A stretch of DNA of 64,000 nt from a virus. Position 1 is the first letter of the stretch, and each line of letters begins with the position of its first letter. The stretch covers positions 41,811 through 105,810 of the IMG/VR virus record IMGVR_UViG_3300025133_005699; one strand, written 5' to 3'. Made by a program: the position numbers and the translations under genes. Shown here piece by piece: positions 41,785-53,120 of the stretch. Under the pieces are notes generated by a model. The model was not told the DNA's origin. It made no database searches and worked only from the letters and a program-made list of their open reading frames with translations.

Positions 41785-43433
41785 CGCTGCCCTCCCTGAA
41801 TTTTATTAGCCCTAATTTTTTCCCACTCATTATGCATCTCTCTCATTTTAGCCATGTGGGTATATGCCAAATTGACATCAAACTTACCCCAATTTCTTAT
41901 ATTGTTGTTAAGGTGTGATTCATTGAAATAGAAATCAACATTTGTACTACTAGCGGTACACTTATACGTAATGTCCCTTAGTGTTCTTTTCCACATATGG
42001 TTTCCAACCCAGTCTGGTCTTCGTAGAACATGATTAAAGAGGAAATCTACCTGCTCTTTGACGCTAAGGTTTGGCGGGATTTCAGTAGCAGATGGTAGTA
42101 TTCTTGGGGCAGAAAACCATGTCTCGGCGTGATTTCTAACTGGCGTCTTATCAAAATAATCCGCCCATTTGCTCGCAGTATCATCCCAGTTATATCGAGA
42201 AAGCGTGCGCTGTCTCATGTTGTAGCCCGCCTGTTTACGTTTCTCATCGCTGGTATTGTAGAGGTCAGTAATATGCTGTAGCGCTACGCTGTTGTCTGGG
42301 ATAGCTCTATTGCAGCCAGTCTCACATTCCATTTGAAGGTAGCTTACCGGAACCTTGAGAGCCCCAATATTGTCTGCGACAGACTGCATAGCGGAATAGT
42401 CAACGGTAATGACGGGAACTCCCGACTGAGACGCTTCTAATTGGGGCATCCCGAACCCCTCACTATTTGCATATTGTATATATACATCAAACAGGCTATA
42501 TATTTGCGCAAGCTCATCTCTTTCTATTTTATTGTTTATACCAACGAGCTCTCTTGTGAAATTTGCACATTGATAGCAATGGTTGATAACGTCATTAAAA
42601 AATGAGGTATTAATATGGCCGCACTTCTTACATCTATACGTAAATAAAACCCTATTGGTCAGCCCATACTCTTGAAGAAGCTGAGGTATTTCCCACCCAA
42701 TATCAGGATAAGATGTGTGGCAGTAAAGATATGCGTTTGGGGCATCGTTAGAGTCTAGAAACTCCCTGAATGTTTTGAATAAGTCTGGAAATAATTTTCT
42801 TCGCTGGTTCCTCATTACCGTACCAAGAATAAACGAGTCTTCAGCTAGCCCAAAATTTAATTTATGCGAGATCTTGTCATGAACAATATCAAACTCCTGA
42901 CTGGCACAGGGAGATGCTATATCTATAAAGTTCAAATCTTGACATTGCCCCAAGAGAACATCTTTGCCGAACTCGGAGTACGCAAACACGGCGTCTGCAC
43001 TAGCGAAGGTATCCATCCACTGGTTATTCTGAGGGGCGGCGTCTACTGTCGGCATTATACACCAATGAAAGAAGTCTCGAAATGGCGTTCTTTGTTGGAA
43101 TTCAAACATCCACCAGTCCCGTATGTCCACAACAAAGTCCGGCATAAAGTCTAACAAGACATGATTGAAGGTATACTCACCAAATTCATATGATGGCTGT
43201 GATTTATACTCATGCCATTCTGGGCTATCTTTTACGGGCTGGTTTGGAAATATAGTCCAGTTGCAGTTCTTGGCCTCTTTATTTGCTCTTGCTTGGTCTA
43301 CATAACAGGCAAGCTCGGCAACCTCAAATCTAGGGTCTACACTCAGGCGAGAAAGAACCTCTTTTGTGTATACAGAATATCCTGTAGGCAAGAAGTGTCC
43401 CTCTGAGCAAAAAAGTATTTTTTTACGTCTCAT
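41781..43433 (-). CDS. Large GT4-like glycosyltransferase with zinc-ribbon insert (550 aa)
   Basis: It opens KKILFCSEGHFLPTGYSVYT, with the acceptor-side loop of GT-B enzymes. The donor domain has FGMPQLEASQSGVPVITVDY. Between the two halves of the donor domain (about residues 275-300) a four-Cys ribbon is inserted: YRCKKCGHINTSFFN then HCYQC. This is not a standard part of GT4 enzymes and may serve partner or substrate binding. The C-terminal 110 residues (VRNHAETWFSAPRILP onward) are an additional domain I do not recognise. First gene of the glycan locus, overlapping the sigma-factor gene by 11 nt. Confidence 0.75.
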   Translation of the reverse strand: MRRKKILFCSEGHFLPTGYSVYTKEVLSRLSVDPRFEVAELACYVDQARANKEAKNCNWTIFPNQPVKDSPEWHEYKSQPSYEFGEYTFNHVLLDFMPDFVVDIRDWWMFEFQQRTPFRDFFHWCIMPTVDAAPQNNQWMDTFASADAVFAYSEFGKDVLLGQCQDLNFIDIASPCASQEFDIVHDKISHKLNFGLAEDSFILGTVMRNQRRKLFPDLFKTFREFLDSNDAPNAYLYCHTSYPDIGWEIPQLLQEYGLTNRVLFTYRCKKCGHINTSFFNDVINHCYQCANFTRELVGINNKIERDELAQIYSLFDVYIQYANSEGFGMPQLEASQSGVPVITVDYSAMQSVADNIGALKVPVSYLQMECETGCNRAIPDNSVALQHITDLYNTSDEKRKQAGYNMRQRTLSRYNWDDTASKWADYFDKTPVRNHAETWFSAPRILPSATEIPPNLSVKEQVDFLFNHVLRRPDWVGNHMWKRTLRDITYKCTASSTNVDFYFNESHLNNNIRNWGKFDVNLAYTHMAKMREMHNEWEKIRANKIQGGQR

Positions 43434-43902
43434 ATCTTCTTATTTTTCCTATTGCCGAGTATAATAAACTATAGTATTCATTCTTTGAAAGGAAAAGCTC
43501 TCCGCAGATGTCTTTTCTGGTATATCCTCTCGATTTAAAATCCAGTATTTTTCTTTCCATCGGTAATAGCTTATCCTTATACGCCGCCAACAAACTCTGG
43601 AACTCCAGCATGTGATGATCTTCTGTGTATTCAGACGGTGTGGCTATTTCTAGTTTTGATAGGCTCTGCCAATCGCTCTCTTTCTTTAGGAATTTTATTA
43701 GGTGGTTTCTGACAGAAGAAAACATATAATTCCTGAGTGGGCCAATTTCGGCATCATAATTTTTAATAGCCTGTAGGGAACCTAAAAAGGCGACCTGAAG
43801 CAAATCCTCAAACTCATAAGATTCAGACTGGTCATTAAACTTTGTAACAAGATATATAATTACATCTAGGTTGTCGTCGATGCTCGCTTTAGTTCTAATC
43901 AT
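43423..43902 (-). CDS. Phage-encoded sigma-70-like factor
   Basis: Protein of 159 aa. Residues about 30-75 match sigma region 2 (YEFEDLLQVAFLGSLQAIKN, then PLRNYMFSSVRNHLIKFLKK), the core-binding and -10 recognition part. The C-terminal 60 residues form region 4-like helix-turn-helix (LLPMERKILDFKSRGYTRKD then ICGELFLSKNEYYSLL). Region 3 is short, as in group 4/phage factors such as late sigma proteins. It overlaps SSB by 8 nt and the first glycosyltransferase by 11 nt. It probably redirects host RNA polymerase to phage middle or late promoters. Its target promoters are not identified. Confidence 0.8.
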   Translation of the reverse strand: MIRTKASIDDNLDVIIYLVTKFNDQSESYEFEDLLQVAFLGSLQAIKNYDAEIGPLRNYMFSSVRNHLIKFLKKESDWQSLSKLEIATPSEYTEDHHMLEFQSLLAAYKDKLLPMERKILDFKSRGYTRKDICGELFLSKNEYYSLLYSAIGKIRRYET

Positions 43903-44230
43903 TCGGTCTTTCTTTTTCGTTGAAAATCTTAAAGCTCTGCACCCTGAAATTTATTTTTTGCTTGCTTTCACCTTGTGGGTTAGTCCATTTTTGCTGCCTA
44001 GCGGAGGCGTGAATGGCTATAATCTGGCCCTTTTTGCAGATTTTATGTATGGTTGTCCCTCCGCTATCCCAAGCCTCGAACTCAAAAAAATCAACTCGCT
44101 TCTTCTTGTTTCCCTCTTTGTCTCTGCGGTATTCTTCAACGGCAAGGAAAAAGGTTACAAGCTGGGTATTTCCAACATCTCTTATTTCAGGGTCAGCAGT
44201 AAACCTTCCCACAAAGTTACAGTTATTCAT
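43895..44230 (-). CDS. ssb: Single-stranded DNA-binding protein
   Basis: OB-fold SSB of 111 aa: CNFVGRFTADPEIRDVG, VTFFLAVEEYRRD, VDFFEFEAWDSGGTTIHKIC and KKGQIIAIHASARQQKW align with bacterial SSB, with aromatic residues for ssDNA stacking. It lacks the usual acidic C-terminal tip (ends KERPND), so partner recruitment through that tip may be reduced. GGAG lies 7 nt before the ATG. A TATAAT element occurs about 35 nt upstream. It precedes the sigma gene and follows the alpha-subunit genes. Confidence 0.88.
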   Translation of the reverse strand: MNNCNFVGRFTADPEIRDVGNTQLVTFFLAVEEYRRDKEGNKKKRVDFFEFEAWDSGGTTIHKICKKGQIIAIHASARQQKWTNPQGESKQKINFRVQSFKIFNEKERPND

Positions 44231-44276: not shown

Positions 44277-45839
44277 TTACGCTTGGGACACTTTGTTAAT
44301 GACCAAACTTGTATCTTTTTTGCTGGATACTTGACCAAAAGCAACAATTGTATTGCCTTCATATAAAATTTCCTTGAATTTACCATATGCCTCAGGAAAT
44401 ATAACAGCAGAGTCAAGGGTTGCTGTAGAGTCTTCCACTGACAAGAAAGCCATAATCTGACCCGGATTTTTACCGTTCTTTGTTGCATATTCTCGCAGGG
44501 AGTTTATATGGATTGCTACGTTTACGTTGCCCGTTCTACCGTTAACTATCTCTTTACATGTACAGTTAACCGCCGCACTTTGTATGGCATCAGTTTTGGA
44601 GAAGGTTAGCGCCACGCCCATATATTTATTTTCTGCATCTGCAATCCAGTTTGGGTGGTCGGTAAGATCAAATGGCGGAGACTCGATAATATTCCGAACA
44701 TCAAATACTTTGATTAGCCTGTTAGAGTTTATCTTTAGGTTATTTATCATATTATCTATAGCAGCAATGATAGAGTCATCTGAGTTGTAGTTTTCAGACA
44801 ACCATTCTCTTTCTCTGATAGACAAATCCCTATAGCTCTTGTATTCATAGAGAAGGGAGTTTCTATGTTTAGTGTTATTTTTACCATTAAAGGCACCAAC
44901 AGTTATCAGTGCCTCAGCACATGTCTTGTTTACTTTTAGTCCCAAGTTAAACAGGGTATCAAGCCAAGTGAATTCTGCAAAAGTTTTACCTAACTTTTGT
45001 TCTATCTCTGGAACCAAATCTAGCATCTTCTTTGTTTCAGCGGTGCCGACGCCCTTGATGTTTGTAACACCAAAATATATATTGTCCTCTGCCGCAGTAA
45101 AAGATGGGTAGAAGTGTCCCAGTCTAGGCGGTAGGGTTTCTATATCATATAGTTTTGCGTCAGACACAAGCTCTTTGATTTCCACCTGTTGGTCTGGCTT
45201 TCTTTCTGAGTGATTGAGATAGGACTCAAAGAATCTCATCTTTCTGTGAACCTTACAGTATGCGCTCCTGTAGGCATTAACAGCATAAGAAACAGCGTGA
45301 GATTTGTTAAACGCATAGCGATTAGATTTTTCAATCCAGCCAAAGATTTCTTCTGCCGTTTCTTTATCAAGCCCTTCGGTACTGGTTGCTCCAGACAAGA
45401 AGGATTTTTTAACTTCTGCCATCAGACCGGCTTTCTTCTTTCCAATAGCCTTACGGAGGTTGTCCGCCTCTTTTAAGTCGAATCCAGCAAGCTGCTGAGC
45501 GATCTTCATGGACTGCTCTTGGTATACAAGAACTCCATAGGTCTCACTGAGAATTGGCTCAAGGCTAGAGTGAATATATTTAGCTTCGTCGATGCCTGCT
45601 TTTCTATCTACGTAGTGCTGGGTCATAGACTTACCCTCGGTAAACGCCTTTAAGCATCCGGGCCTAATGATTGAAATTAGAGCCGCAAGCTCTTCTATAT
45701 TTCGAGGCTTAACCCTCTTTGCCCAAGATCTACCAAGCTGAGACTCTAGCTGGAATACCCCTTTGGTTCTTCCGTCGCAAATCAAATCCCACACTTTGTC
45801 GTCTTGGAAGTCGTTAATATCAAACGTAGAATTCGCCAT
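44277..45839 (-). CDS. dnaE: DNA polymerase III alpha subunit, C-terminal part (split DnaE)
   Basis: Carries the fingers, helix-hairpin-helix and OB-fold parts of DnaE. FDINDFQDDKVWDLICDGR then TKGVFQLES, the family region after the palm; IIRPGCLKAFTEGKSM; YGVLVYQEQSMKIAQQLAGF; KSNRYAFNKSHAVSYAV, the canonical FNKSH block; FGVTNIKGVG, the tandem helix-hairpin-helix; and a C-terminal OB-like fold. The three catalytic Asp residues are in the other gene (46739). I chose ATG at 45839; an in-frame TTG lies two codons earlier. It overlaps the exonuclease gene by 20 nt. No intein sequence is present, so the two halves must associate non-covalently. About 520 residues. Confidence 0.9.
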   Translation of the reverse strand: MANSTFDINDFQDDKVWDLICDGRTKGVFQLESQLGRSWAKRVKPRNIEELAALISIIRPGCLKAFTEGKSMTQHYVDRKAGIDEAKYIHSSLEPILSETYGVLVYQEQSMKIAQQLAGFDLKEADNLRKAIGKKKAGLMAEVKKSFLSGATSTEGLDKETAEEIFGWIEKSNRYAFNKSHAVSYAVNAYRSAYCKVHRKMRFFESYLNHSERKPDQQVEIKELVSDAKLYDIETLPPRLGHFYPSFTAAEDNIYFGVTNIKGVGTAETKKMLDLVPEIEQKLGKTFAEFTWLDTLFNLGLKVNKTCAEALITVGAFNGKNNTKHRNSLLYEYKSYRDLSIREREWLSENYNSDDSIIAAIDNMINNLKINSNRLIKVFDVRNIIESPPFDLTDHPNWIADAENKYMGVALTFSKTDAIQSAAVNCTCKEIVNGRTGNVNVAIHINSLREYATKNGKNPGQIMAFLSVEDSTATLDSAVIFPEAYGKFKEILYEGNTIVAFGQVSSKKDTSLVINKVSQA

Positions 45840-46509
45840 TTGCAAATGCTTTCTCGAACTTTGTCTTTTGTGAAATGTTTCTTTGGAACTTCAGGAACTT
45901 AATGAGGATATTTGCCGTATCTTTCACGTCTTGAAGGGCGTCATGAGCGTTCTCTTTGCTCTCTTCTGGGAATCCCATATACTCTCGCAGGAAGTCCATA
46001 CTAATACTCTTGAAGTCTCGATTGTTTTCTGTCCAAGAAAATACCATATCCATCAAGTCGATCTTGAAGATTGGATTAAAGATAGACTGCCGACCCCTAG
46101 TATCGGTAGTGCCGTACATCTCGCACATTCTCTGAGCAATAGGTAAATCAAAACCAATAATATTATATCCAGCGGCTATAGGTGCAGTATAAGACGAGCC
46201 TCTAAAGTTGAACTTATTGCAGAAGTCCTCAAACTTTTTCCATACTGTCTTTGGTAGCGGAGCCTTAGCAAGGGCTTTTCTGTTCTTGCCAGTAATCTCT
46301 AGTGCTTCCTCCTCTAGTGGGTCAACCCCAGCTTCAATAGCTTTCTTGTCGTCAATGATGGGTCTAATCTCGCTATTAAAAATACCGCCCGGCTGAATTG
46401 TTAGTTTACGCCCATGTAGAGCAATAGCCGCAATCTGCGTTGGCTGTGTTGTTAGCGGGTTTCTAGAACCTGTTTCAAAGTCAAATACAATTATATCTCT
46501 AAAATTCAT
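45820..46509 (-). CDS. DnaQ-like 3'-5' proofreading exonuclease
   Basis: DEDDh-family exonuclease of 229 aa. Exo I is IIVFDFETGSRN (Asp10, Glu12), exo II is GYNIIGFDLPIAQRM, and exo III contains ENAHDALQDVKDTANIL, where His and Asp complete the site. It probably supplies proofreading for the split DnaE, whose PHP domain lacks metal residues. It lies between the two polymerase halves. It overlaps the 76-aa gene by 4 nt and the C-terminal polymerase gene by about 20 nt. Confidence 0.88.
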   Translation of the reverse strand: MNFRDIIVFDFETGSRNPLTTQPTQIAAIALHGRKLTIQPGGIFNSEIRPIIDDKKAIEAGVDPLEEEALEITGKNRKALAKAPLPKTVWKKFEDFCNKFNFRGSSYTAPIAAGYNIIGFDLPIAQRMCEMYGTTDTRGRQSIFNPIFKIDLMDMVFSWTENNRDFKSISMDFLREYMGFPEESKENAHDALQDVKDTANILIKFLKFQRNISQKTKFEKAFANGEFYV

Positions 46510-46736
46510 TTAAGTAATCCTTTTAATTCAACAAACTTATTAACAGCTTCATCTATGTCTTTAAAGATTTTGCTATACTTATGACGAGGGTTATCTGAAT
46601 GCACTTGATAGGCACCCATAGTATCCCCTCTATATTGTGGTAGAAAATGTCTCAAATCGCACAAACTTATGCTTTTAGATTCAATAGCACAGCCAGAAAA
46701 AATGACTGACTTATAATCGTTCTTAATACCGCTCAT
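46506..46736 (-). CDS. Small protein between polymerase halves (76 aa)
   Basis: Unrecognised protein with a clear AAGGAG six bases before its ATG, overlapping the 3' end of the N-terminal polymerase gene region, and an ATGA overlap with the exonuclease start. It has no Cys cluster or transmembrane segment. The sequence CDLRHFLPQYRGDTMGAYQV and KIFKDIDEAVNKFVELKGLL suggests a small alpha-beta fold. Its position inside the replisome block raises the possibility of a bridging subunit, but that is only inference. Confidence 0.6.
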   Translation of the reverse strand: MSGIKNDYKSVIFSGCAIESKSISLCDLRHFLPQYRGDTMGAYQVHSDNPRHKYSKIFKDIDEAVNKFVELKGLLK

Positions 46737-46738
46737 TC

Positions 46739-48316
46739 TTACTCCTTAATTTCCATGATTTTACTAAGTAGATCAATACCTAGTATATCAAATTTAACAT
46801 GTCCTTGATCTTCTAAATCGCCCATTTCAAAACCGGCAATGAGATTTTTACTTTTATCTTTAACCATAGGACAAACTTGGTTTAGTTTATTTGCTGATAT
46901 AATAACTCCAGCAGCATGTTTCCCTTGAGATTTTATCGTACCCTCAATGTCGATTGCTTGCTGAAAAATTGCTGCGAATGGGCCAATCAAATCGTTATCA
47001 CTGTTTAGCTTGCACCACCTGTCTAGAACTTCTGGTTGATAAGCAAGTGTCCACCGAATTAGCGAGCCCTCACCGCTCTCCTCTAAAAGGTCTGAAACGT
47101 CAGCCTCGTTAGGTATGTTTTTAGTCACGTCGTTCATCTCTCCAAAAGAAACTGCGCTATTAATACGCATGATTTCCTTAAGGGCTGCTCGACCCTGTAG
47201 CTTATTAAATGTCAACATCTGGGAGACATTATCTTCGCCGTATTTAGATTTAATATATCCAATAACTTCATCTCGCTTTTCGGCAGGAACATCTAGGTCA
47301 ATATCCGGAAGAGATACATGACCCTCGGTATTACGGCCAGCATTGTAAAATCTCTCAAAGATTAAGTCGTACTTAATAGGGTCAATTTCTGTAATACCAA
47401 TAAGATATGAAATCAAACATCCGGCAGCCGACCCTCTTCCCGGGCCCGGCAACCACCCCTCAGACCTAACATAATTAACAATATCTTGAACAATAAGAAA
47501 GTACCCAGAAAGACTAGCATCAAAAATTACACTCATCTCGTTTTTAATTCTTTTTAGGTATTCCTCTTTCTTGTCTTCGCTCTTAACAATGCCAGTATCC
47601 TCTAAGAGCTTCTTCCAGCCCTCTCTACAAAGCTGCTTTAAGTATTCGTCTTCGGTGTACCCTTCTGGGCAATCGAACGCAGGAAGCATTGGGCTGCCAA
47701 GAATGTCATACTCCTCACACTGGTCGGCAATCTCTAGACTGAGCTTTATTTGCTCTGCGCTGTAAATATTTTCAACTTCGCTTGGACTCAGTAGATAATG
47801 ACCGTCGCTCTTAAAAAAGGGCTTTAAGTGTTTAAACGAATCAGAAACGATTTTATCTTTAGCTTTTTTCATGCTGGTTTTCATACCCGAGCATAAAAGT
47901 ATTCTGTGTAGCTCTGCGTCTTTAGTCTCGACGTAATATGCTGGTTTTTGTTTTAGGTCATCAATACATATAAGGTTTTCGTTTAGAGAGACCTTTAGCA
48001 GTTTCTTCATTACATCATCAGAGTATGTGCTCTTCTTAGAAACAATATCAATGAGCGCGTACCAGCCGTCTTTGTTCTTTGCTATATATGTCTTGCTCTT
48101 GTGGTTTTCAAACTCAACAGTGCACCCCATAATAGGTTTAATGTCATGCTTTTTACACTCTTTGTAAAAATTGACAGCTCCAGATATAGTATTAATATCT
48201 GTAATAGCACAGGCCGGATAGCCGTACTCTTTACACTTAGCCACTAACCCATCAGGTTTCGAGAAACCTCTCTGTAGGCTAAAGTGCGTCTTGTTATTTA
48301 GTGGAACCCAAGTCAT
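46739..48316 (-). CDS. dnaE: DNA polymerase III alpha subunit, N-terminal part (split DnaE)
   Basis: PHP plus palm of DnaE (525 aa). The PHP domain starts NKTHFSLQRGFSKPDGLVAK and AITDINTISGAVNFYKECKK: the first metal His and the usual TDH His are replaced, so PHP exonuclease activity is probably lost. The palm has GPGRGSAAGC (residues 291-300) and PDIDLD (337-342), carrying two catalytic Asp, and the third Asp is in HVKFDILG (Asp509). The protein ends 16 residues later, in the helix before the segment where the C-terminal gene begins. All three catalytic Asp are here. It overlaps the preceding gene by 23 nt. Confidence 0.92.
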   Translation of the reverse strand: MTWVPLNNKTHFSLQRGFSKPDGLVAKCKEYGYPACAITDINTISGAVNFYKECKKHDIKPIMGCTVEFENHKSKTYIAKNKDGWYALIDIVSKKSTYSDDVMKKLLKVSLNENLICIDDLKQKPAYYVETKDAELHRILLCSGMKTSMKKAKDKIVSDSFKHLKPFFKSDGHYLLSPSEVENIYSAEQIKLSLEIADQCEEYDILGSPMLPAFDCPEGYTEDEYLKQLCREGWKKLLEDTGIVKSEDKKEEYLKRIKNEMSVIFDASLSGYFLIVQDIVNYVRSEGWLPGPGRGSAAGCLISYLIGITEIDPIKYDLIFERFYNAGRNTEGHVSLPDIDLDVPAEKRDEVIGYIKSKYGEDNVSQMLTFNKLQGRAALKEIMRINSAVSFGEMNDVTKNIPNEADVSDLLEESGEGSLIRWTLAYQPEVLDRWCKLNSDNDLIGPFAAIFQQAIDIEGTIKSQGKHAAGVIISANKLNQVCPMVKDKSKNLIAGFEMGDLEDQGHVKFDILGIDLLSKIMEIKE

Positions 48317-48803
48317 AATTCGTAAATTCTTTCAATTCTGATATAGCAACGTTATGGCAATCTGCCCGAACAACGAACCCGTTAGATGGGTCAACCTGTC
48401 CTTTGGTTAGCTTCCGAGCCCTTTTGAAATATTCATCATGCTCAAGCCACCCAAGAACCCACGCTCTTCCCCATCTCTTATTTTTATTTTCTATTCTAAC
48501 AAATACATACCTATCGCACTTTTGCTCGGTATTAAAGTTTGCAACAGAGCAATCATAATATGGTTTTGGCGGAGATGTACATCTTTTGGTTTTGACATCA
48601 TATTTAATTCCACTTTTTGAAACCACGTCGTAGTCGTATGTATTACTTATTGTACCATCAATAACTACATTTGCAACCTCTTCTCCTAAAAAACCTGCAA
48701 TATTTCCGTCACCCTTCATTATAGAGTTACGTATTACGCCCATTTCACGGGATTTAGCCCAAGCCTGCTTCTTCATTTTTTCTGTAATTTTTATCTCAAT
48801 CAT
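48294..48803 (-). CDS. PD-(D/E)XK-type nuclease-like protein (169 aa)
   Basis: Small protein with a restriction-nuclease-like core: GFLGEEVANVVID, YDYDVVSKSGIKYDVKTKRC (the D...DxK pair) and a later YVFVRIENKNKRWGRAWVLG strand. This arrangement is common in phage-encoded nucleases that cut host DNA or process phage DNA, but the exact family is not recognised. It overlaps DnaE-N by 23 nt and starts in an ATGA overlap with the Cas4/RecB-like gene. Confidence 0.55.
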   Translation of the reverse strand: MIEIKITEKMKKQAWAKSREMGVIRNSIMKGDGNIAGFLGEEVANVVIDGTISNTYDYDVVSKSGIKYDVKTKRCTSPPKPYYDCSVANFNTEQKCDRYVFVRIENKNKRWGRAWVLGWLEHDEYFKRARKLTKGQVDPSNGFVVRADCHNVAISELKEFTNYDLGSTK

Positions 48804-49813
48804 CCCGGCGCCTCATAGTGTCCAATACTGAAACCTTCTTTAGTGCAATTTTGAACGGTGTCCATCATGCCAAACTGCTCTAAATTGTTACTTACATGCC
48901 TGCATATATTATCATTGGTTCCGGGCCAATCGTTTTTACAGAAATCGCAAAGCTTTGTACATTTCCAGTGCGCCTGTCTTCTAGATAGCATTTTTGGGTT
49001 AGTCGTTTTCTTGATTTCCTCAAATCTATCCTTCAGCATACCCAAGAACTTCTCTTTGTCTGAATCTTCAAAGCAAATACTAAATGGCCCACCGTCGCGT
49101 ATATAAAATATCGACATGATGGCATCCTTGTATTCAGGAAACTTTTTAGAAATAGCATAATAATAAAGCATTAACTGAGGGTCTTCGCATAGCTTTTCAT
49201 ATGTCTTCTCTTCTCCTGTGGCCCAGTTTAGCCTTCTTCCTGTTTTCCAGTCAATGACCTCAATGACACCATCATCAAGTTCCGTCACTAGGTCGATAGT
49301 ACCCTTAATAGCTAGCTGACCCTCTAGAGTTTCCCCATCTTCTGTTTCATATGAAAATTTTGCCCAGTCTTCCTCAATCGCGATATCGAAGTGAGGCTCT
49401 GATGCGATAATATTTCTATTTCGAGGATCGAAATTTCCGTCATCATATAGTAGGCCCTCCCAAGTTGTGTCTTCACAGAACTTATAGTCGGCATTTGTGT
49501 AGTGATGACTACAGTTCTCTGTGTAGTATTCATAACTTCTCTTGATAATCTCGTTCACAAACTTTTTTGTATTGAGTTTTCTTTTAGTGAACTCTATCTT
49601 TCCTAGACCATCATCATTTAATACCATCTCACTCTTGTCCTGCAAGATCTTTTTACACCCACCTAGCACCTCCATGACCTTGTGGACGATTGTTCCAAGC
49701 TGGGCTTTTTTACCAGAGACACTTTGATGACCTAAGACATAGGTTATAAAGTATTGCATCTGACAGTATTCAAAATTATTATAACTAGAACTACGTATAT
49801 ACGTTACTAACAT
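48800..49813 (-). CDS. Cas4/RecB-like PD-(D/E)XK exonuclease with Fe-S-type Cys
   Basis: Exonuclease of 337 aa by the ATG at 49813 (AAGGA 6 nt upstream; an in-frame GTG at 49840 has no site). It has SYNNFEYCQMQYFITYVLG with the first Cys, GTIVHKVME, the nuclease core GTIDLVTELDDGVIEVIDWK then TGRRLNWA, and a C-terminal Cys group KCTKLCDFCKNDWPG and ICRHV. One N-terminal plus three C-terminal Cys is the pattern of a [4Fe-4S] cluster in Cas4/AddB. Probable recombination or DNA-end processing nuclease working with the annealase. Confidence 0.8.
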   Translation of the reverse strand: MLVTYIRSSSYNNFEYCQMQYFITYVLGHQSVSGKKAQLGTIVHKVMEVLGGCKKILQDKSEMVLNDDGLGKIEFTKRKLNTKKFVNEIIKRSYEYYTENCSHHYTNADYKFCEDTTWEGLLYDDGNFDPRNRNIIASEPHFDIAIEEDWAKFSYETEDGETLEGQLAIKGTIDLVTELDDGVIEVIDWKTGRRLNWATGEEKTYEKLCEDPQLMLYYYAISKKFPEYKDAIMSIFYIRDGGPFSICFEDSDKEKFLGMLKDRFEEIKKTTNPKMLSRRQAHWKCTKLCDFCKNDWPGTNDNICRHVSNNLEQFGMMDTVQNCTKEGFSIGHYEAPG

Positions 49814-49814
49814 A

Positions 49815-50642
49815 TTATTCCTTAATCTTTTGGATGCCACCTAGAAGATTTGGGTCTTCTGTAGGGGGTGCAGGACTGGGTTCCTCGATAACGCTACCGA
49901 GCCATCCCCATTCTTCAAGTAGAGATATTACCTTCACATTCGTTTCCATTAAAGATAACTCCTTGTTGTCAATAATGGCGTCGTATTCAATGTCATCAAC
50001 AGAGGACTCGCTAGAATGACTGTCGCCATCTATACCGCGAGTTAATTTAATAACCTTGCCTCCAGCTTTTTGTATTGCTTTTGATTCGTTTGGGAATCTA
50101 CAGTCAGAGATTACAGCCATTAAAGAACCCTCTTCTCTAATACTTCTCATGGTTCTGTCTGTCCAAATGTCTGTGTAGATATACCGACAAATATCTGTAC
50201 CAAAGACCTGTAAAAATTCTCTGGCTGTCATTCTGCCGGTTTCGCTTCCGGTGTAGCCCGGCATGTCTTCCCACTTAATCCATGTGGGGCTATTTTTATC
50301 TGCATCTGTCCCGTAGCACTGTTTCTTTGTCAGTCCAAATAATCCACATGCAATCTCCTTAAGAGAAGAAGCAAACGAATAATGTTTTACAAATGGCCAC
50401 ATGTTGTGTGCGGCCCAAGGTGCAAATTCTGGGTCAGTTCTAGTTACGTCCAAAACGCCTTTACCTGTTTCTTCTACCCCAGAGCCGTCAGTATCAACGG
50501 TATCGACAACAATCCTTCCCTTAGTGTCTAGATCAAAACCCTTAATAATGTGATAAGACCGCATTTGATATCCGTGTAGAAAGGCACAGCACGAATTTTT
50601 ACCTGATTGCTTTTTTCCCGCAAAAGCCAAGATTCTTGTCAT
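49815..50642 (-). CDS. Deoxynucleoside monophosphate kinase
   Basis: P-loop kinase of 275 aa. The N-terminus has LAFAGKKQSGKNSCCAF (Walker A GKKQSGKN, residues 9-16). The family marks MTAREFLQVFGTDICRYI, ISDCRFPNESKAI and GGKVIKLTRGIDGDSHSSE match phage dNMP kinases such as T4 gp1. Converts dNMPs to dNDPs for phage DNA synthesis. It has a Pro-rich C-terminal tail (PSPAPPTEDPN) not essential for the fold. It overlaps the primase stop as TAATG. Confidence 0.85.
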   Translation of the reverse strand: MTRILAFAGKKQSGKNSCCAFLHGYQMRSYHIIKGFDLDTKGRIVVDTVDTDGSGVEETGKGVLDVTRTDPEFAPWAAHNMWPFVKHYSFASSLKEIACGLFGLTKKQCYGTDADKNSPTWIKWEDMPGYTGSETGRMTAREFLQVFGTDICRYIYTDIWTDRTMRSIREEGSLMAVISDCRFPNESKAIQKAGGKVIKLTRGIDGDSHSSESSVDDIEYDAIIDNKELSLMETNVKVISLLEEWGWLGSVIEEPSPAPPTEDPNLLGGIQKIKE

Positions 50643-51688
50643 TATAAAACTCCTTGTAGTTCTTCTAGTATTTCAGTTTTAATTTGTTCTACCGACATAT
50701 CACCAACGTCTTTTTCTGATATATTGGGCCTATAGTAGTTGAAGCGTCTTCCGCATTTTTTCATAATTTGCTCTGCTGCTCTATGTCCAGCATCATCGTA
50801 ATCTGTAAGTATAACTAAGCTAAGGGCACCGCTTTGTTCTAATAAAACCAGTTGATCATCACTGAGGCTAGCCCCAAAAATACCAACTGTATTTTCTACA
50901 CCTGCTTCGTGCATACGCCAAACGTCGCCTTGACCCTCAACCAAAACTGCCGTAGCTGTTTCAAGTATTTTTTCTTTTGCCATGTTTAGGCCATACAGAT
51001 ATGAGCTTTTTCTAAACCCCTTGCTGTGCAGCCATTTAGGCTGCATGTTCTCGTAACATGACCTACCTATGCATCCAATATAATTATAGCCTTCATCATA
51101 GATTGGGACAACAACTCTTCCTGACATTGGCTTATTTTTTTTGTCACAGAGGCCAATATCAAATTTAGTTAATATATCAGTAGTGTACCCTCTGTTAATA
51201 TAGTATTCAGCTGGTATTTGTATTGTGTCTAAAATAACTTCCCTATCTACTTTTGGGGGCTCTCTTTCTGGCTCCCTGTTGAAGATGTCCAAAAGCTTAA
51301 TAGCATTATTGCTCTCTACGTCTTGTAATAGGTCGAGTTCAGAGATGTCAAGATCTAAGAACTCTAAGCAAAAATTAATTGTATCAATAATACTAACCGT
51401 TGAGGCTCGCCTGTTGGACAGCACACCCCTAATGAAACCAAACAGGTTCCTAGAAAAGTCTTCTTCACAGTGGTTAGTCCAGCAGTTCCAGTTACCCTTG
51501 GCGGTATTTCCGTCCGTGAATATAGTACAAGCCTCTGCGTTGTCTCCCCCATGAATAGGGCACGCAAAAGCAAACCTATTAGGATACTCTATGTAGTCTA
51601 TATTGAAATACTTTAGAAGCTGTGACAGCTTAGTGAATAACTGGTTAGACAGTTTCAATATCTGCTGGTTGTTGATCTCCTGATTCAA
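50642..51688 (-). CDS. DNA primase (zinc and TOPRIM domains), TTG start
   Basis: Protein of 348 aa with a zinc-binding primase N-terminus (ACPIHGGDN..., GNWNCWTNHCEED, Cys43-His46-Cys69-Cys74) and a TOPRIM core (AVLVEGQGDVWRMHEAG, then LVILTDYDDAGHRA). It lacks a helicase domain, since DnaB is encoded upstream. No ATG is available; TTG at 51688 has AAGGA eight bases before it, inside the 3' end of the helicase gene (overlap 44 nt). It makes RNA primers at the replication fork. Confidence 0.85.
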   Translation of the reverse strand: MNQEINNQQILKLSNQLFTKLSQLLKYFNIDYIEYPNRFAFACPIHGGDNAEACTIFTDGNTAKGNWNCWTNHCEEDFSRNLFGFIRGVLSNRRASTVSIIDTINFCLEFLDLDISELDLLQDVESNNAIKLLDIFNREPEREPPKVDREVILDTIQIPAEYYINRGYTTDILTKFDIGLCDKKNKPMSGRVVVPIYDEGYNYIGCIGRSCYENMQPKWLHSKGFRKSSYLYGLNMAKEKILETATAVLVEGQGDVWRMHEAGVENTVGIFGASLSDDQLVLLEQSGALSLVILTDYDDAGHRAAEQIMKKCGRRFNYYRPNISEKDVGDMSVEQIKTEILEELQGVL

Positions 51689-53120
51689 AACCTGTATCCT
51701 TAATAGTTGACTTAGTTCTCAATTCATTGCGAGTTTGACCCTCTACTAATTTGCCAAACTTCCCAAACATATTCATATTTATATAGTCGCCATCATCTAA
51801 TCCTGCTCCGTGACGAGCAACAATAGGTACCAGCTTCCTGTTTCCATTTTCGTCTGTGTCGTCGGCTATCTCCTCGTCGGACTTTAGCTTGAAGATGCTA
51901 AAGCTCGTACAGAGCCAAATAAGCCTATCGGAACCTGAAACGACATCTGTTGATTCTTTTGTTATGCCGTCTCTGTTTAATTGTACAAAGCTAAGGCATG
52001 GCACGTCGTACTTAACGCAGAAGTTATGCAGCTGTGTGATTTGAAACCCTAGAACTTGAAATTCTTGCATAGAGTTTGATATACTAGATGAGTTCATTAG
52101 CTTAAGATAGTCATAAACAATTAGGCAGTCTTTGGTTCTTCCGTTTTCATCAAACCCAACTTCCTGATAAATCCATTTGCGCATAATACTAAGAATGTTC
52201 TCAAACGGCTGACCCGCAATACTAACATAATGAAAAGGTATTTCTCCCAATTCGGTAGCTGCGTTTTCTACCTTTTCGGTATTTAGTTGGTTACTGTCGA
52301 ACTTGCCGCTAGCAATAGTGTTGATTTCAACTCCACTCAGGTTCGCTAGCATTCGATTGAGATGGTCTTCTTTGGACATTTCGGTATCTAGAACTAATAC
52401 TGGGATTCCTAAGTTTTTAGAAACATGCATAGCAACAGCGTCACCAAACATAGATTTACCAACCTTAGGTCTAGCGGCAACTAAGTCTACACACTTTCTT
52501 CTTAGCCCTCCGCCGATAGCTTCGTCATAAGCAGGGAACCCTGTGCTTATGCCAATCATGTCGTTTTTGTTTTCTTTTAGAAACTCTATATAGTCTGTTA
52601 TTTCCCCGCCGATTACCTCAGGCTTATTGTCGGAACCTTGATATATTTTAGACGTTGCGTCAAGAACAGGAGTTTCTATGAGAGAGATGATATCATTTAT
52701 ATCCTCGTCTCCTGTGACCTCATCAATTTTATTAGAACAAATAGCCAGTGTCTTCTTGACTTCTCTTGCTATTCCTAGCTTCGCCAGCTTACCTGCGTGT
52801 ATTGAAACATTTTCTTCGTGTATTGGAAAGTTAAACAGAGAACGTAAAAAACCAATCTCCTCTTGGTTGTTTATATTTTCATAACACCCAAGCTGATTGG
52901 CAGCAGAAAGCAAGGAAGATAATTCTACCTTGTTGGATTTCTCTAAGACCTTTTTAATGCACCCAAAAATAATTTGGTTGGTGGGGTCTGTGAAGTGTTC
53001 GGACTCCAGATAGTCTGAATCAAGCGAAACGCTTAGTCCATATTGACACAATCCGGAGAGAACCGCCCTCTCTGCTGCTAGGTCTTCTAGCTTCCGCTTG
53101 TTTTTTTGATTTCGTACCAT
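51645..53120 (-). CDS. dnaB: DnaB-family replicative helicase
   Basis: Hexameric helicase of 491 aa. An N-terminal DnaB-like domain (LEDLAAERAVLSGLCQYGL) precedes a RecA-type ATPase domain: ISTGFPAYDEAIGGGLRRKC, Walker A ARPKVGKS (residues 216-223), VLVLDTEMSKEDHLNRMLA, CLIVYDYLKLM (Walker B) and CLSFVQLNRDG. It unwinds DNA at the fork and pairs with the primase encoded just downstream. A small membrane-protein candidate overlaps its first 34 nt in another frame. Confidence 0.9.
   Translation of the reverse strand: MVRNQKNKRKLEDLAAERAVLSGLCQYGLSVSLDSDYLESEHFTDPTNQIIFGCIKKVLEKSNKVELSSLLSAANQLGCYENINNQEEIGFLRSLFNFPIHEENVSIHAGKLAKLGIAREVKKTLAICSNKIDEVTGDEDINDIISLIETPVLDATSKIYQGSDNKPEVIGGEITDYIEFLKENKNDMIGISTGFPAYDEAIGGGLRRKCVDLVAARPKVGKSMFGDAVAMHVSKNLGIPVLVLDTEMSKEDHLNRMLANLSGVEINTIASGKFDSNQLNTEKVENAATELGEIPFHYVSIAGQPFENILSIMRKWIYQEVGFDENGRTKDCLIVYDYLKLMNSSSISNSMQEFQVLGFQITQLHNFCVKYDVPCLSFVQLNRDGITKESTDVVSGSDRLIWLCTSFSIFKLKSDEEIADDTDENGNRKLVPIVARHGAGLDDGDYINMNMFGKFGKLVEGQTRNELRTKSTIKDTGFESGDQQPADIETV

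What the first reader, a model, noticed from the sequence alone, without database searches (positions are those of the whole stretch)
44277..48316. DNA polymerase III alpha subunit split by its own proofreading exonuclease
DnaE is in two genes: residues up to 16 past the third catalytic Asp in one, fingers/HhH/OB in the other, with a 76-aa gene and a DnaQ exonuclease between. The breakpoint differs from the cyanobacterial split-intein site (FNKSH is intact inside the C-terminal half), and no intein sequence is visible. It suggests a two-piece polymerase assembled non-covalently, with the small protein as a possible bridge.
Basis: partly seen in the sequence, partly recalled or inferred. Interest (0 to 1): 0.75.

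Follow-up and report, generated by a model that had tools for sequence, protein, structure and literature searches.

The report
Phage replicase split into two genes
A large group of uncultivated, mostly aquatic phages makes its DNA-copying enzyme (a bacterial-type DNA polymerase III alpha subunit) as two separate proteins, with the gene for its proofreading partner in between; both halves are strongly preserved and no splicing element is present, so they probably dock together to form one working enzyme.

Summary
DnaE is encoded as an N half (PHP, palm, thumb; 48316-46739) and a C half (fingers, HhH, OB; 45839-44277), separated by a 76-aa gene and a DEDDh DnaQ exonuclease. The break falls in the palm-fingers linker (E. 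coli residues ~570-590); the catalytic Asp triad and FNKSH are intact. It is no artefact: the same break, with DnaQ between the halves, occurs in all 127 distinct complete relatives retrieved (51 clusters at 70% identity). They form one fully supported clade, and every unsplit DnaE lies outside it. dN/dS is 0.01-0.05 in both halves where measurable. None of 18 large contigs has an intact DnaE, PolA or PolB. Terminal extensions (<=21 and <=50 aa) leave no room for a split intein; a relative with a true split intein elsewhere in DnaE is a positive control. Best reading: an ancient fission giving a two-subunit replicase assembled non-covalently. A bridge role for the 76-aa protein is unlikely: 24 distinct loci have no gene there. 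HNH/endonuclease VII genes recur in the break, as in T4-type split genes. Rossellomorea phage phiT1 was split independently at the same linker, giving a cultured test case. New variant of a known kind.

The parts
46739..48316 (-). DnaE N half (525 aa): PHP, palm, thumb; ends ...GHVKFDILGIDLLSKIMEIKE
47297..47305 (-). codons D338-D340, first two catalytic Asp (E. coli D401, D403), motif LPDID
   Evidence: invariant in A1
46787..46789 (-). codon D510, third catalytic Asp (E. coli D555), motif VKFD
46506..46736 (-). 76-aa ORF (S76), alpha-beta(4)-alpha model, optional in the clade
45820..46509 (-). DnaQ-like DEDDh 3'-5' exonuclease (229 aa), always between the halves
44277..45839 (-). DnaE C half (520 aa, start ATG 45839): fingers, HhH, OB
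45297..45311 (-). FNKSH motif (cyanobacterial split-intein site), uninterrupted; H181 = E. coli H760
43895..44230 (-). SSB, next gene downstream
43423..43902 (-). sigma-factor-like gene downstream
48294..48803 (-). 169-aa ORF overlapping the N half, possible PD-(D/E)XK nuclease; relatives sit between N half and DnaQ in some phages
48800..49840 (-). PD-(D/E)XK exonuclease
49815..50642 (-). dNMP kinase
50642..51688 (-). DnaG-type primase (Toprim)
51645..53120 (-). DnaB-type helicase

Best explanation
An ancestral phage dnaE was cut once, in the flexible linker between the palm and fingers domains, and the two-gene state became fixed in a large phage clade. The phage now makes two subunits from a translationally coupled operon (N half - optional small ORF - DnaQ - C half). 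The N subunit carries the catalytic Asp triad and the C subunit carries the nucleotide- and DNA-binding fingers plus HhH/OB. They dock non-covalently, across the normal palm-fingers interface, into one C-family replicase proofread by the co-encoded DnaQ. Shown: the split, its clade-wide fixation, intact catalytic residues, strong purifying selection on both halves, absence of any other DnaE/PolA/PolB in the contigs, absence of intein or known intron. Inferred: non-covalent assembly, activity, DnaQ partnership, and a homing-nuclease-assisted origin.
For: Same break with DnaQ between on the same strand in 127/127 distinct loci. One split clade of 40 tree rows with SH-aLRT 100, all 26 unsplit rows outside it. 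dN/dS 0.007-0.045 (N) and 0.013-0.045 (C) where dS is not saturated. Triad and FNKSH His invariant. Break maps to the E. coli ~570-590 linker, little else missing. One palm and one fingers per record in 17/18 large contigs, no PolA/PolB. Independent split at the same linker in phage phiT1. C half modelled alone is low-confidence in residues 1-65 and 176-182 although these are very conserved, as expected if they fold against the N half (only 10 sequences). Precedent: split T4-type gp43A/B co-purify and have polymerase activity, split Aeh1 NrdA is fully functional (PMC2988022).
Against: No biochemical data; no complex of the two halves could be modelled here. The break removes covalent coupling across the active site, which could cost processivity. 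No canonical clamp motif is seen where E. coli has QADMF, so how processivity is achieved is unknown.
Confidence: 0.85

Rival explanations
1. The halves are joined covalently after expression by a cryptic split intein or by trans-splicing of RNA.
For: Split inteins do occur in phage DnaE: L273 has one at PGRG|SAAG inside its N half, and L048 has an N-intein at the cyanobacterial FNKSH site.
Against: Across 220 loci the N-half tail after the last conserved motif is 4-21 aa and the C-half head 4-50 aa, together too short for a Hint domain; no Cys or HN junction in the window. No Rfam intron in the region or in ten related loci. In L273 the intein sits elsewhere while the palm-fingers break is still plain.
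Confidence: 0.04
2. The halves do not form a phage polymerase: one or both act as modifiers of the host replicase or in another role, and the host Pol III copies the phage genome.
For: Function is inferred from sequence only; no other polymerase is present, but phages can use host Pol III.
Against: Full catalytic triad and fingers conserved at dN/dS about 0.02 in both halves; always together, in one operon, with DnaQ, near SSB, primase and DnaB. A role for only one half would let the other decay.
Confidence: 0.07
3. The 76-aa protein is an obligate bridge that holds the two halves together.
For: Sits between the halves in 55/127 distinct loci; confident small fold (pLDDT 90); under constraint; unrelated small ORFs occupy the same place in 23 other loci and in phiT1.
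Against: 24 distinct loci in 10 clusters have no gene there; 10/18 large contigs lack the family anywhere; evolves faster than the halves; no match to a known structure.
Confidence: 0.03
4. Assembly error, frameshift or a decaying pseudogene.
For: None.
Against: Two complete genes lie between the halves in the window; 127 distinct independent loci show the same arrangement; very low dN/dS.
Confidence: 0.01

Closest known systems
T4-type split gp43 (43A/43B) of Aeromonas phages 25 and 44RR, and split NrdA of Aeh1 (PMC2988022)
   Same: Essential phage enzyme in two ORFs without protein splicing; homing nucleases in or near the break; halves shown to co-purify and be active (43A/43B of phage 25) or fully functional (NrdA)
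   Different: Family B polymerase (or RNR), few related phages; here a family C polymerase, palm/fingers linker, fixed across a deep clade, with DnaQ between the halves
Split minimal Pol III alpha of group 2.2 jumbo phages (PMC7824862)
   Same: Phage Pol III alpha in two proteins, predicted to reconstitute
   Different: There: minimal core, distant genes, alongside a family B polymerase. Here: PHP and OB kept, adjacent genes, no PolA or PolB found
Cyanobacterial split-intein DnaE
   Same: DnaE in two genes
   Different: Break at FNKSH with intein halves; here FNKSH is intact, the break lies elsewhere and there is no intein
Rossellomorea phage phiT1 gp20/gp19/gp18 (PV767480)
   Same: DnaE split in the same palm-fingers linker, with a small ORF between
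   Different: Independent origin on the tree, no DnaQ between, cultured host
Split DNA polymerase of OM43 phages MEP401/402 (PMC10580990)
   Different: Zobellviridae-related lineage; the authors leave splicing open; polymerase family not checked here

Membership tests
C-family DNA polymerase (DnaE) | Catalytic Asp triad D401/D403/D555 | tested here: met
   D338, D340, D510 invariant
C-family DNA polymerase (DnaE) | PHP, palm/thumb, fingers, HhH, OB in order | tested here: met
   Pfam and PDB matches over both halves; the OB match is below the Pfam cut-off but is supported by the fold model
C-family DNA polymerase (DnaE) | Single polypeptide | tested here: not met
   Two ORFs 0.9 kb apart
C-family DNA polymerase (DnaE) | Polymerase activity | not testable with these tools
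   needs protein
DnaQ-type DEDDh exonuclease | D-E-D-H-D residues | tested here: met
   D10, E12, D121, H189, D194 invariant in A4; RNase_T 7.4e-12
Cyanobacterial split-intein DnaE | Break before CFNKSH with intein halves | tested here: not met
   FNKSH intact; tails too short
Split-intein 'fractured gene' | Split intein halves on the two exteins | tested here: not met
   positive control L273
T4-type nuclease-interrupted split gene | Break occupied by a homing nuclease | tested here: inconclusive
   None in the window; present in 20/127 distinct relatives, 11/49 inserted ORFs by Pfam
T4-type nuclease-interrupted split gene | Halves co-purify and are active | not testable with these tools
   needs protein
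Jumbo group 2.2 split Pol III alpha | Coexists with family B polymerase, distant genes | tested here: not met
   No PolB in 18 contigs; genes adjacent

The most novel reading that the evidence does not exclude
The split is functional, not just tolerated: the fingers/OB protein is an exchangeable or regulated subunit that loads onto a palm/PHP/DnaQ core, making this the first replicase of the C family that is a true heterodimer across its own active site, kept for control of assembly or replication switching.
Probability: 0.12. Interest if true: 0.85.

Novelty: new variant of a known kind. Interest (0 to 1): 0.6.

Why it matters
In the bacterial surveys I read, the replicative C-family polymerase is one chain, apart from cyanobacterial intein splits and sporadic fragmented sequences (PMC3919608, PMC12926913). 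Here a large phage clade has lived with an intein-free two-piece version long enough for its members to diverge to about 42% identity. It shows that the chain can be cut between the catalytic palm and the nucleotide-binding fingers. It marks the exact tolerated site, found twice independently. It also offers cultured (phiT1) and recombinant routes to ask how a split replicase assembles and whether subunits exchange at the fork. It warns annotators and marker-gene surveys that complete phage polymerases can appear as two partial genes.

Tried and rejected
Split intein: rejected on tail lengths, with L273 and L048 as positive controls. Group I/II intron: no Rfam match. Intact second DnaE or another polymerase: none. 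S76 as E. coli theta (HolE, also 76 aa, from memory): rejected, the model is alpha-beta(4)-alpha and not all-helical, with no PDB match. Bacteroides phages DAC16 etc. looked split from separate DnaQ and C-half hits, but their DnaE is one 1277-aa gene. Cultured members of the clade: none; best identity about 34%. Bacterial genomes: only three MAG contigs, which may be phage contigs misbinned into them, so the host is unresolved. My nuclease-density comparison is biased, because its models were built from the inserts; searches give the less biased count.

Full report
What is there. The region encodes, on the minus strand, an operon of replication genes: DnaB helicase, primase, dNMP kinase, a PD-(D/E)XK exonuclease, a 169-aa ORF, the N half of DnaE (525 aa), a 76-aa ORF (S76), a DnaQ-like exonuclease (229 aa), the C half of DnaE (520 aa), SSB and a sigma-like protein. 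The N half matches the PHP and DNA_pol3_alpha models, the C half the fingers and HhH models, with an OB domain recognised weakly by sequence and clearly in the fold model. Against E. coli DnaE, the N half ends at about residue 574 and the C half resumes at about 580-590, so only a short stretch of the palm-fingers linker is missing. The catalytic Asp triad (D338, D340, D510) and the FNKSH motif are intact. The genes overlap or are separated by a few bases, as expected of translational coupling.

It is real and it is old. Searches of IMG/VR with the N half, the 76-aa ORF and profiles of both halves, plus one genome scan and a few fetched controls, gave 293 loci. Of these, 257 are split, 22 are truncated contigs with only the N half, 13 carry palm and fingers in one ORF and one is unrelated. 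Among split loci with both halves complete there are 127 distinct at 99.5% identity and 51 clusters at 70%. In all 127, DnaQ lies between the halves on the same strand. In a maximum-likelihood tree (quick mode), the 40 split rows form one clade with SH-aLRT 100; every unsplit phage or E. coli DnaE is outside it. The searches would have returned unsplit members of the clade as readily as split ones; none was found.

It is functional. Pairwise dN/dS (Nei-Gojobori) is 0.007-0.045 for the N half, 0.013-0.045 for the C half and 0.005-0.028 for DnaQ in pairs where synonymous sites are not saturated. In 18 large contigs (61-206 kb) there is one palm and one fingers match each, in different ORFs, except one 206-kb record with two similar split pairs about 146 kb apart; none has PolA or PolB. 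These contigs are not certified complete.

It is not spliced. Beyond the last conserved motif the N half has 4-21 residues; before the first, the C half has 4-50. Together this is too little for an intein. The method can see inteins: relative L273 has a split intein at PGRG|SAAG within its N half, and phage contig L048 has an N-intein at the cyanobacterial site. No Rfam intron is found.

The 76-aa protein. It folds confidently in silico as alpha-beta(4)-alpha but matches no solved structure. Its family is in 55/127 distinct loci; 23 others have a different small SCC-motif ORF in its place; 24 (10 clusters) have nothing between N half and DnaQ; 10 of 18 large contigs lack it altogether. It cannot be a general bridge.

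How it probably arose. The intervals between the halves are invaded repeatedly: endonuclease VII, HNH_3 and GIY-YIG-type genes make up 11 of 49 inserted ORFs, while none appeared among the families listed for 100 random flanking ORFs (25 of 32 families were shown). Nuclease genes lie between the halves in 20 loci of 13 clusters. This parallels T4-type phages, where homing nucleases are associated with split gene 43 and nrdA and the two-piece enzymes work (PMC2988022). As in that case, the nucleases may have invaded an already split gene; the window itself has none. A second, independent split in the same linker is found in the cultured Rossellomorea phage phiT1 (gp20, 49-aa gp19, gp18). Other phage DnaEs are broken elsewhere: before the PDID motif in Bacillus phage Jayan and L293, and at the PHP/palm boundary in L042/L049. 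Phage DnaE is thus fracture-prone, and the palm-fingers linker is one tolerated site.

How it probably works. The two proteins dock across the palm-fingers interface. Modelled alone, the C half is least confident in residues 1-65 and around the FNKSH loop (176-182), which are among its most conserved parts, consistent with folding against the N half; the alignment was shallow, so this is weak support. DnaQ is the likely proofreader: in the window's subclade the PHP metal ligands are lost, whereas a sister subclade keeps them.

Novelty. I found no report of this clade-wide split. The nearest are the minimal split Pol III alpha of group 2.2 jumbo phages (PMC7824862) and split T4-type polymerases. 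Surveys of bacterial C-family polymerases mention only intein splits and fragmented sequences attributed mostly to frameshifts (PMC3919608). I therefore rate it a new variant of a known kind. The literature search covered open-access text only.

Noticed in passing
L273:4766-7105: Bona fide split intein inside the N half at PGRG|SAAG (N-intein starts CFVPETNIKMSDG, C-intein ends GIGVHN|S), so that phage has a DnaE in three genes.
   Followed up: partly
L048:9276-10898: A phage DnaE carrying an N-intein at the cyanobacterial split-intein site (FADY|CLAGNTEIL) and, in addition, broken before its catalytic Asp motif.
   Followed up: no
L309:5001-8408 (Bacillus phage Jayan) and L293:1861-4932: DnaE interrupted just before the PDID catalytic motif; no intein seen and no Rfam intron match. 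May be an undescribed intron or an insertion.
   Followed up: partly
window 48294-48803: 169-aa ORF with a possible PD-(D/E)XK signature (FLGEE...YDVKTKRC), no Pfam family; relatives move between upstream of the N half and the N-DnaQ gap (L092, L106, L110, L117, L124).
   Followed up: partly
window 48000-48316: PHP metal ligands lost (LNNKTH, ITDINT) whereas sister split phages keep them (PLHVHS, LTDHG), although both encode DnaQ: a natural comparison of PHP versus DnaQ proofreading.
   Followed up: partly
window 44277-45839: No recognisable beta-clamp motif at the position of E. coli QADMF.
   Followed up: no
L012:9569-10378, L024:6844-9039, L027:10475-11149: Sugar-nucleotide enzymes (UDP-glucose dehydrogenase, epimerases) and a sulfotransferase-like gene inserted between the polymerase halves.
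   Followed up: no
L221 record (206 kb): Two similar but not identical split DnaE sets about 146 kb apart; chimeric contig or duplicated replication module.
   Followed up: no
window 36-24933: Tail and structural region with a 3087-aa ORF and other giant proteins mostly without PHROG matches; a long run of genes including glycosyltransferase-like ones follows at 25-43 kb.
   Followed up: no
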